From a virus, in IMG/VR virus record IMGVR_UViG_3300034200_001984, positions 1 through 43,680 of that record: 43,680 nt of DNA; one strand, written 5' to 3'. The translations under genes were made by a program, and so were the position numbers. The notes under the pieces were generated by a model that did no database searches, was not told where the DNA came from, and worked only from the letters and a program-made list of their open reading frames with translations. Within the stretch, counting starts at the first letter, position 1. The number at the start of each line of letters is the position of its first letter. Positions 34,265 through 36,947 of this stretch are shown piece after piece.

Positions 34265-35104
34265 ATGATATTTAATTTAAATCAAGAAGAATGTTGTTAT
34301 ATTTTAGGATTTTTTTGGGCAGATTGTTATTTTGGTATTTCTTCTAGTGGCAGATATAATTTTTCTTTTGAAATAAAAACGGATGATTTTTTAAATGTTT
34401 GGAGTTATTTAGAAAACATAGGTTTTGAAAAATATAAAACTAGAAAAAGAAAAAATTCGAAAAATACGCAAACGTATATTAAATCAGCTAAACAAAAAGA
34501 AATGCAATTCTTTAAAAAATATAATTTTGATAAAAAAAATAATGGATGTCCATTGTATTTTGATTTAGAAGATAAGATGAAGCCATTTTTTATAAAAGGT
34601 TTTTTAGATGGTGATGGCAGTATATCATTGGATAGAAATAACGGTTTTAGAATCGGATTTAATGGTCCGAAAAATCAAAATTGGTACTTTTTGGAGGATT
34701 TTTGTAATAAAAATAATATCAAATTTGCAATCTATAGAAAAGATAGAATATCTAAACACGAAACTCACAAAAAACAAATCCACGGATATTCAGTTTTTGA
34801 ATTTACCAATATAGAAAATAGATTAAAAATGTGTGATATTTTAGATTTAAATATAGGTCTTTCTAGAAAAATAGATATATATATAAAATATAAAAAAAAT
34901 AGAGATGAAAGGAATATACAAAAAAATATTTTAAAAGAAAAAAGATTAAATTATAAATTAGAGACTGTAAGTAAAGGAATAAAAAAAGATTTTAATCAAA
35001 AATTTGTAACATATTCCTCAGTAAAGATTGATAAAAAATACAAATATTTAGGAACATTTAAAACATTAGATGAAGCATTAGAAGCACAAAAAAATGTAAT
35101 TTAA
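34265..35104 (+). CDS. LAGLIDADG-type homing endonuclease with AP2-like tail
   Basis: 279 residues. CYILGFFWADCYF (about 11-23) and KGFLDGDGSISL (about 113-124) are the two LAGLIDADG helices, the second intact and the first with D in a WAD setting. The final ~50 residues (YKYLGTFKTLDEALEAQ) look like an AP2/integrase-type DNA-binding strand-helix that often accompanies phage homing enzymes. Plus strand in a minus-strand region, inserted between a metallophosphoesterase and a hypothetical gene, with no interrupted coding sequence visible. Very AT-rich, low-complexity codons. Confidence 0.85.
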   Translation: MIFNLNQEECCYILGFFWADCYFGISSSGRYNFSFEIKTDDFLNVWSYLENIGFEKYKTRKRKNSKNTQTYIKSAKQKEMQFFKKYNFDKKNNGCPLYFDLEDKMKPFFIKGFLDGDGSISLDRNNGFRIGFNGPKNQNWYFLEDFCNKNNIKFAIYRKDRISKHETHKKQIHGYSVFEFTNIENRLKMCDILDLNIGLSRKIDIYIKYKKNRDERNIQKNILKEKRLNYKLETVSKGIKKDFNQKFVTYSSVKIDKKYKYLGTFKTLDEALEAQKNVI

Positions 35105-36340: not shown

Positions 36341-36414
36341 TGGTGCGAAATGAGAGAATCGAACTCTCGACCGAAGTTTGGAAAACTCCTGTTTTGCCAC
36401 TAAACTAATTTCGC
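36341..36414 (-). tRNA. tRNA-Gly (anticodon UCC), CCA encoded
   Basis: Acceptor GCGAAAU/AUUUCGC, U8-A9, D arm GUUU...AAAC with AGUGGC loop, anticodon stem GGAGU/ACUUC around loop UUUCCAA, and T arm GAGAG-UUCGAUU-CUCUC, followed by discriminator A and encoded CCA. All arms pair. Anticodon UCC reads GGA/GGG glycine codons. The tmRNA ends one base before its 5' end, so both are cut from one precursor. Confidence 0.95.
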
Positions 36415-36415
36415 T

Positions 36416-36831
36416 TGGTGGAGGTGACGGCCTACGATAGCCGTTTCCAATGAACGTTCGCTTTCAGATCTACACATGCTTTAATATATTTAATTTATAA
36501 GGTATATGGCATATTAACCAACCTATATGCCTTAAAGACGCATACAATCTTTCCACAATAAATTTTACATGATTTCTAGCGGATTGTCAAAACCTCTGCT
36601 ATTCAAAACGGATTTAGAGGATTACCGTTAGGCTCTTAAGCGGCGAGTAAATACTCTTCTTCAAAGCTGGCGAGAACGTCGTCAGCGTTGTTGAAGATGT
36701 ATTCAGCCTCAGCTAAGAGGTCAGAAGTATTGTCTTCTGCATTTAGTTTTTAATAGATGATTAAAGAGGCCAACTATTATCCTCTACATGCACTGAGAAG
36801 TTAGAATCCAATGTCGAATCCTTTCACCCCC
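36416..36831 (-). ncRNA. ssrA: tmRNA (SsrA) with 34-residue tag
   Basis: 416 nt on the minus strand. The 5' end GGGGGUGAAAGGAUUCGAC has the conserved tmRNA start, and its first seven bases pair with CACCUCC before an encoded ACCA 3' end. The mRNA part begins after ACUAAAU with GCA (Ala resume codon) and ends YLLAA-stop. The T-like arm ACGGC/GCCGU closes an 8-base loop (UAUCGUAG) rather than the canonical UUCRANN. tmRNA charged with Ala enters stalled ribosomes, releases them, and marks the nascent chain for ClpXP-type proteases. It needs host SmpB. None is visible here. Confidence 0.92.
36636..36740 (-). other. tmRNA tag reading frame (34 codons + TAA)
   Basis: The tag starts AEDNTSDLLA, continues EAEYIFNNADD, then VLASF, and ends EEEYLLAA. 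Ten Asp/Glu and no basic residue. Hydrophobic YLLAA at the end fits the ClpX/ClpA-recognised LAA degron. Most bacterial tags are 8-15 residues, so this is unusually long. The resume context UAAAU-GCA matches many bacterial tmRNAs. Confidence 0.88.
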
Positions 36832-36850
36832 ATAATTTCAAAGAACAATT

Positions 36851-36933
36851 GCTAGAAAGCTTTTCATTGGCTACCGTGTTTTTAACACGCTGGACGAAAT
36901 TTTACTTATTAACCCTGCCTAATCGGGTCTAGC
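36851..36933 (-). ncRNA. Structured element upstream of tmRNA
   Basis: Between the 61-residue gene and the tmRNA 5' end, an 83-nt stretch is closed by GCUAGA/UCUAGC. It contains two internal hairpins: CCC-GAUUAGGCA-GGG and CGUGUU-AAA-AACACG. This is not a tRNA fold I can complete. It may be a processing leader, a riboregulator or a further small RNA. Confidence 0.45.
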
Positions 36934-36947
36934 ACAAAATATATACA

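What the first reader, a model, noticed from the sequence alone, without database searches (positions are those of the whole stretch)
36416..36831. Phage-encoded tmRNA with an exceptionally long 34-residue acidic tag
The 5' conserved block, acceptor pairing with the 3' end, encoded CCA and an Ala-resume ORF ending YLLAA are all visible. The tag has 10 acidic and no basic residues, whereas most bacterial tags are 8-15 residues. A long acidic extension could recruit a different adaptor or protease, or serve as a longer decoy. tmRNA in phages is known but uncommon.
Basis: partly seen in the sequence, partly recalled or inferred. Interest (0 to 1): 0.9.

Follow-up and report, generated by a model that had tools for sequence, protein, structure and literature searches.

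The report
Phage tmRNA with conserved 34-residue tag
This large-phage DNA carries a genuine ribosome-rescue RNA (tmRNA) that would add an unusually long, 34-residue tag to stalled proteins, and the middle of that tag has been kept almost unchanged across dozens of related viruses although no bacterium searched has it, which suggests the phage's tag is read by something specific.

Summary
A one-piece tmRNA lies at 36416-36831 on the minus strand (Rfam RF00023, 99.4 bits, E 8.5e-38). It has encoded CCA, a G3·U70 acceptor pair, two pseudoknots and a 34-codon tag, AEDNTSDLLAEAEYIFNNADDVLASFEEEYLLAA, with 10 acidic and no basic residues. I found 46 distinct homologous tmRNAs in uncultured phage contigs, with tags of 32-35 residues. 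Helices covary strongly (27 of 46 pairs with compensatory changes; 0 of 500 shuffles). The tag is under protein-level selection (pN/pS 0.24 overall; 0.05-0.075 in codons 11-21). Its core is AEAEYIFNNAD, and AlphaFold predicts a helix-turn-helix. A tag-core scan of ~85,000 prokaryote genomes found no tmRNA, and no cultured phage matched. Tags of 8-35 residues were already known, so the length is extreme but not unprecedented. What is new is a phage-only, strongly conserved long tag, mounted on two exchangeable tRNA-like domains. The best explanation is a working phage tmRNA that uses host SmpB. It would append a bipartite degron: a ClpX-like (L)AA end plus an internal recognition element for an unidentified adaptor or AAA+ protease. 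The recognition step is inferred. Host and protease are unknown. New variant of a known kind.

The parts
36416..36831 (-). tmRNA gene (ssrA), one-piece, 416 nt including encoded CCA
   Evidence: Rfam RF00023 99.4 bits, E 8.5e-38, model 1-374 of 374; homologues with covariation
36825..36831 (-). acceptor stem 5' strand GGGGGUG (pairs with 36420-36426); G3·U70, the alanine identity pair
   Evidence: pairing read directly; G3·U70 kept in 31 of 31 homologues while pairs 5 and 6 covary
36416..36426 (-). acceptor 3' strand CACCUCC, discriminator A, encoded CCA
   Evidence: sequence, Rfam alignment
36427..36444 (-). T arm with unusual 8-nt loop UAUCGUAG (TLD type A)
   Evidence: same arm in relatives and in permuted viral tmRNAs; T-stem covariation in all 5 pairs
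36751..36785 (-). pseudoknot 1: AGAGG/CCUCU and UAAUAG/CUAUUA
   Evidence: stem pairing 97-100% of cells with compensatory changes (helices 4-6)
36636..36740 (-). tag reading frame, resume codon GCA to stop UAA, 34 residues
   Evidence: translation; pN/pS 0.24 overall, 0.05-0.075 for codons 11-21; conserved UA at -5/-4 of the resume codon (PMC2481249)
36593..36629 (-). pseudoknot 2: AACGG/CCGUU and CCUCU/AGAGG
   Evidence: helices 7 and 8 (92-94% paired, helix 7 with compensatory change in all 5 pairs)
36839..36846 (-). putative promoter element GTTCTTTG, ending 7 nt before the 5' end
   Evidence: TCTTTG-like box kept in nearly all relatives whatever the sequence further upstream; function inferred
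36341..36414 (-). tRNA-Gly(UCC), one base downstream of the tmRNA
   Evidence: ARAGORN, Rfam 66.1 bits
37133..38146 (-). RNA ligase gene upstream on the same strand
   Evidence: phrog_968 E 7e-54, Pfam RNA_ligase; used to find relatives

Best explanation
It is a working tmRNA of a large, probably lytic, tailed phage. Shown by sequence: a complete tRNA-like domain with the alanine identity pair, a resume-codon context of the known kind, two pseudoknots, and a 34-codon frame kept by selection on the peptide. Inferred: the RNA is charged by the host alanyl-tRNA synthetase, binds host SmpB (no phage SmpB was found), rescues ribosomes stalled on broken or non-stop mRNA during infection, and adds the 34-residue tag. 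The tag would act as a bipartite signal. The C-terminal (L)AA is a ClpX-type end, and the invariant core (LxEAEYIxNN, with A-D/E-x-F/V-L after it), predicted to form a small helical hairpin, is a docking element for an adaptor or AAA+ protease, host or phage. Tagged fragments would then be destroyed faster or through a different protease than host-tagged ones.
For: Covariance match. Covariation of acceptor, T arm, P2, PK1 and PK2: 96.4% of cells paired, 167 cells with double changes against 40.5 in shuffles, 0/500. G3·U70 in 31/31. Invariant T87 A88 and GCA92-94 give the U85/A86 equivalents, at the right distance from the resume codon. 46 distinct homologues from several retrievals, two of them independent of the tag. 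Tag indels are all whole codons and lengths are 32-35; pN/pS is 0.24, and 0.32 outside the core, in the 29 sequences found without using the tag; entropy is highest at third codon positions. Core codons 11-21 give 0.05-0.075, so the middle of the tag is more constrained than its ends, which implies a sequence-specific reader. Helices at 5-17 and 19-33, mean pLDDT 86. Precedent for a long ssrA tag read by its own protease: M. florum Lon (PMC3439342).
Against: No expression, tagging or degradation data. The host is unknown, so its proteases are too. No SspB-type adaptor was found in 34 phage records. A ClpC-like unfoldase was found in only 3 of 37 records, not in this one. The AlphaFold model is of a 34-residue peptide, with low confidence at the C-terminus (pLDDT 57). 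Selection on the peptide does not by itself show that it is a degron.
Confidence: 0.55

Rival explanations
1. The tag is simply the host's own long tag: an unsampled bacterial lineage carries the same tmRNA tag and the phage copied it, so the ordinary host pathway reads it.
For: Phages can carry host-like tmRNAs (PMC9004378), and the host here is unidentified. Uncultured lineages are under-sampled.
Against: The tag-core pattern gave only 10 unrelated hits in ~85,000 genomes. Nothing in 395 Bacteroidota genomes (though that search had no positive control). Bacteroidota tags are 9-10 residues. The tag is shared by phages whose other proteins are mostly 35-73% identical or have no detectable relative.
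Confidence: 0.2
2. The tag does not promote degradation. The helical hairpin binds a phage or host factor to sequester, localise or stabilise rescued fragments, or the main benefit is ribosome recycling and the peptide serves another role.
For: Strongest constraint lies in the core, not in the C-terminal end, which varies (LLAA, ALAA, ALVA, EYAA, EAAV, LLTA). A small folded element is not needed for ClpX recognition.
Against: The final Ala, Ala at -2 and Leu at -3 are nearly invariant, as in classical degrons.
Confidence: 0.2
3. The length and conservation reflect RNA-level constraint (structure inside the reading frame) rather than the peptide.
For: The frame contains local hairpin potential in the RNA.
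Against: Synonymous changes are frequent (pS 0.38-0.51) while amino-acid changes are rare; the other frames show no such pattern (pN/pS 1.7 and 1.06) and hold stops in 42 and 46 of 46.
Confidence: 0.03
4. It is a tmRNA remnant or decoy that titrates SmpB and blocks host trans-translation.
For: A near-TLD-only sequence in mycobacteriophage DS6A and a similar inhibitory molecule are reported (PMC4131195).
Against: Here the mRNA-like part, stop codon, pseudoknots and reading frame are all kept under selection, which a decoy would not need.
Confidence: 0.03

Closest known systems
Bacterial one-piece tmRNA (Rfam RF00023)
   Same: Full-length covariance match, G3·U70, resume codon context, PK1/PK2, (L)AA-ending tag
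   Different: 34-residue tag with a conserved internal core; 8-nt T-loop; no bacterial homologue of the tag found
Permuted / two-piece tmRNA of phages (RF04321; e.g. viral contigs L076, L011)
   Same: The TLD (GGGG[GA]TG, GGATTCGAC, T-loop UAUCGUAN, encoded CCA) is of the same type
   Different: Here the gene is not permuted and has a different, long-tag mRNA-like part
Mesoplasma florum ssrA tag with its Lon protease
   Same: Long tag (stated as 32 residues in PMC3439342), reported there as read by a cognate protease and orthogonal to the E. coli system
   Different: No sequence relation was tested; this tag is phage-encoded, keeps an (L)AA end and has no protease assigned
Other phage tmRNAs (mycobacteriophage Bxz1 and Wildcat groups, Bacillus phage G, Methylophilales phage Melnitz, huge phages)
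   Same: Virus-encoded ssrA; 402 of 18,146 phage genomes reported to carry one (PMC9004378)
   Different: No cultured phage record matched this tag or this RNA beyond a 36-base 5' stretch

Membership tests
tmRNA (RF00023) | Covariance model score above gathering threshold | tested here: met
   99.4 against 47 bits
tmRNA (RF00023) | Alanine acceptor stem with G3·U70 and CCA end | tested here: met
   31/31 homologues have G3·U70; CCA encoded here
tmRNA (RF00023) | Pseudoknot before the tag frame and at least one after it | tested here: met
   PK1, PK2 with compensatory changes
tmRNA (RF00023) | Resume codon four nucleotides after the conserved A (E. coli A86), in-frame stop, tag under coding selection | tested here: met
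tmRNA (RF00023) | Charged with alanine, binds SmpB, tags stalled proteins | not testable with these tools
   needs biochemistry
Permuted two-piece tmRNA (RF04321) | Gene order permuted, 3' acceptor half upstream of the 5' half | tested here: not met
   5' end at 36831, CCA end at 36416, standard order; RF04321 not reported
ClpXP-type ssrA degron | C-terminal LAA or similar hydrophobic end | tested here: met
   LLAA here; last A invariant, L and A before it nearly so
ClpXP-type ssrA degron | Degraded by ClpXP in the host | not testable with these tools
   host and protease unknown
Long-tag, dedicated-protease ssrA system (M. florum Lon type) | Cognate protease encoded by the same genome | tested here: inconclusive
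   ClpC-like gene in 3 of 37 related records, none in the 43.7-kb window fragment; Lon not searched

The most novel reading that the evidence does not exclude
The conserved helical-hairpin core of the tag is a phage-specific handle read by a phage-encoded factor (an unknown adaptor, or in some relatives the phage's own ClpC-like unfoldase with a ClpP-docking LGF loop), so that these phages run a private trans-translation and proteolysis channel separate from the host's short-tag pathway, with exchangeable tRNA-like domains fitting it to different host SmpB or synthetases.
Probability: 0.18. Interest if true: 0.85.

Novelty: new variant of a known kind. Interest (0 to 1): 0.52.

Why it matters
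Tags from tmRNA are usually treated as short, simple degrons. A phage-only tag family about 33 residues long, whose centre is more conserved than its degron end, gives a defined peptide for finding what reads it: a new adaptor, an unusual protease specificity, or a non-degradative use of tagging. If the host is a member of the Bacteroidota, its own tag is short and unrelated, and the system could test whether phages divert trans-translation to their own ends. The modular swap of tRNA-like domains on a nearly identical mRNA-like part is a natural experiment on which tmRNA half must match the host.

Tried and rejected
Host assignment: ribosome-binding sites are near background (9/63; window 6/41 against a 7% background, G006 and G023 at background) and A is common at -3, which fits Bacteroidota, but no enrichment of the Bacteroidota -7 box was found and phage ClpC is about equally close to Bacteroidota and a spirochaete; host left open. 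Cultured phage relatives: none for the RNA, the tag or a glycosyltransferase beyond short or weak matches; the RNA ligase and tail sheath have only distant matches. PDB search of the tag gave only weak matches to a TPR protein, BepA (E 0.03 or worse), treated as chance. ClpP in three relatives is probably a prohead protease and not a partner. Acidity as the defining property rejected because the probable distant cousin in L009/L107 has lysines. 'Outside the known length range' rejected (8-35 residues). Helical hydrophobic moment of the core is not significant. Foldseek was not run: a 34-residue hairpin would match too much.

Full report
What is there. The window is a 43,680-base viral record of 33% G+C. 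On the minus strand, 36831 to 36416, lies a complete one-piece tmRNA gene (RF00023, 99.4 bits, E 8.5e-38, full model). It begins GGGGGUG-AAA-GGAUUCGAC and ends CACCUCC-A-CCA, so CCA is encoded. A tRNA-Gly(UCC) follows after one base. Upstream on the same strand are a 61-codon ORF and an RNA ligase gene. ARAGORN does not report the tmRNA.

The tag. From the resume codon GCA at 36740 the frame reads AEDNTSDLLAEAEYIFNNADDVLASFEEEYLLAA and stops at UAA ending at 36636: 34 residues, 10 acidic, none basic. The bases UA at -5 and -4 of the resume codon match E. coli U85 and A86, the latter being the main frame determinant (PMC2481249). They are invariant in the alignment. In a 217-kb relative ARAGORN itself reads a 33-residue homologous tag from that same position.

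Relatives. A DNA pattern for the 5' end, RNA-ligase homologues and a pattern for the tag core gave 46 distinct full-length homologous tmRNAs in uncultured viral contigs. Tags are 32-35 residues and differ by whole codons, with consensus AEDNTSDLLAEAEYIFNNADEFLxGVEEEYALAA. The same tag-core pattern in one genome for each of ~85,000 prokaryote species hit only ten unrelated proteins or reading frames, mostly acyl-CoA-ligase-like, with no tmRNA. 395 Bacteroidota genomes gave nothing, although that search had no positive control. Cultured phages gave nothing for the tag and only one 36-base 5' match for the RNA.

RNA-level test. On 31 distinct sequences, a structure of acceptor, P2, PK1, PK2 and T arm (46 pairs) is 96.4% paired. 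27 pairs show compensatory change, and there are 167 doubly changed cells against 40.5 in shuffles, none of 500 shuffles reaching it; sliding the partner by one base drops pairing to about 49%. Pair 3-70 is G·U in all 31, while pairs 5 and 6 covary.

Protein-level test. In the 29 sequences found without using the tag, pN/pS is 0.24; outside codons 11-21 it is 0.32, and inside 0.075. Other frames give 1.8 and 0.9. The true frame has no internal stop, whereas frames +1 and +2 contain stops in 42 and 46 of all 46 sequences. So the peptide is selected, most strongly in its middle. Leu9, Glu11-Ala12-Glu13-Tyr14-Ile15, Asn17-Asn18 and the last Ala are invariant among 33 distinct tags. AlphaFold2 on those 33 tags predicts two helices, residues 5-17 and 19-33, with pLDDT 93-96 over residues 1-20 falling to 57 at the C-terminus. 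This is a prediction for an isolated peptide.

Exchangeable tRNA-like domains. The window's TLD (type A) has an 8-nt T-loop UAUCGUAG. The same arm occurs in permuted, two-piece-type viral tmRNAs. Close relatives such as L120, about 95% identical over the mRNA-like part and ligase-linked like the window, carry a canonical type-B TLD (GGGGGYG...TACTGGTTTCGAT, T-loop TTCRANY, CCA often not encoded). Along the L120 alignment, 40-base identity is 90-100% just upstream and in most of the mRNA-like part. It falls to 0.68 in the 5' TLD and to about 0.2 across the 3' TLD and the tRNA-Gly, and returns to 1.0 beyond. Two contigs (L047, L088) combine a type-A 5' end with a type-B 3' end. I infer recombination that exchanges both TLD halves around one conserved mRNA-like part; why is unknown.

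Partners. No SmpB was found in 31 related records, so host SmpB is presumed; no SspB in 34. A ClpC-like protein (two Clp_N repeats, two AAA modules, UVR motif, TLGFGAP loop resembling the ClpP-docking LGF motif) is present in 3 of 37 records, including the 217-kb one. All records may be fragments, so absence elsewhere says little.

Host. Genes lack clear Shine-Dalgarno enrichment and have A at -3, as in Bacteroidota, but this is not proof. Bacteroidota tmRNA tags are 9-10 residues such as GENNYALAA. If the host is of that phylum, the phage tag is nothing like the host's.

What is known. Tags of 8-35 residues are on record (PMC8012679). Phage tmRNAs are known (PMC4131195; PMC9004378; PMC7162821). 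A long M. florum tag is read by its cognate Lon and is orthogonal to the E. coli system (PMC3439342). Other viral tags recovered here span 9-25 residues, median 13. So the RNA is an ordinary member of the tmRNA family in all testable features. The unusual points are the phage-restricted, strongly conserved long tag and the swapped TLDs.

Mechanism. Shown: a conserved, structurally intact tmRNA with a peptide-selected long tag. Inferred: charging, SmpB binding, ribosome rescue during infection, and recognition of the tag core by an adaptor or protease in addition to the (L)AA end. The rivals are host origin of the tag, a non-degradative role, RNA-level constraint (contradicted) and a decoy (unlikely). 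I put about 0.95 on a functional tmRNA and 0.55 on the bipartite-degron reading.

Noticed in passing
window 36850-36935, minus strand: An ~85-nt conserved structured element (GCTAGACCCGATTAGGCAGGG...TTTCTAGC) directly upstream of the tmRNA promoter; in 29 distinct relatives, sometimes 0.5 kb or further away, with compensatory changes in three helices and no credible Rfam match. Possibly a new small RNA.
   Followed up: partly
window 36839-36846, minus strand: (G/T)(A/T)TCTTTG box 7-10 nt before the tmRNA 5' end in nearly all relatives regardless of upstream sequence; likely promoter.
   Followed up: partly
L009:6727-7166 and L107 (from 1749): Another viral tmRNA with type-A TLD and a 32-residue tag AKAIANAVEAVKS[V/A]MTNVAEFFFAEEPCLMAA, same length and sharing N17, A19, F22 but otherwise different and with lysines; possible distant cousin.
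   Followed up: partly
L092, minus strand, about 1580: A candidate viral tmRNA with a 35-residue frame ANGIMAIIPLEDEVYILQEESCSDPVKMTLAACFA; not verified.
   Followed up: no
L312:658-3147 (minus); records behind L145 and L109: Phage-encoded ClpC-like unfoldase with an LGF loop (seen in the L312 copy) in three phages carrying the long-tag tmRNA; in the L145 record it lies about 4 kb from the tmRNA.
   Followed up: partly
L298:2999-3073 (minus) and L302:19632-19706 (plus): ARAGORN reports a tRNA with a four-base anticodon gacg in two different related phages; possible frameshift-suppressor-type tRNA.
   Followed up: no
L027:602-520 and L142:9415-9497: Homologous tmRNA with an extra ~80 nt between the tag stop region and the following pseudoknot.
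   Followed up: no
window 34265-35104, plus strand: LAGLIDADG-like ORF, a possible homing endonuclease on the opposite strand to its neighbours.
   Followed up: no
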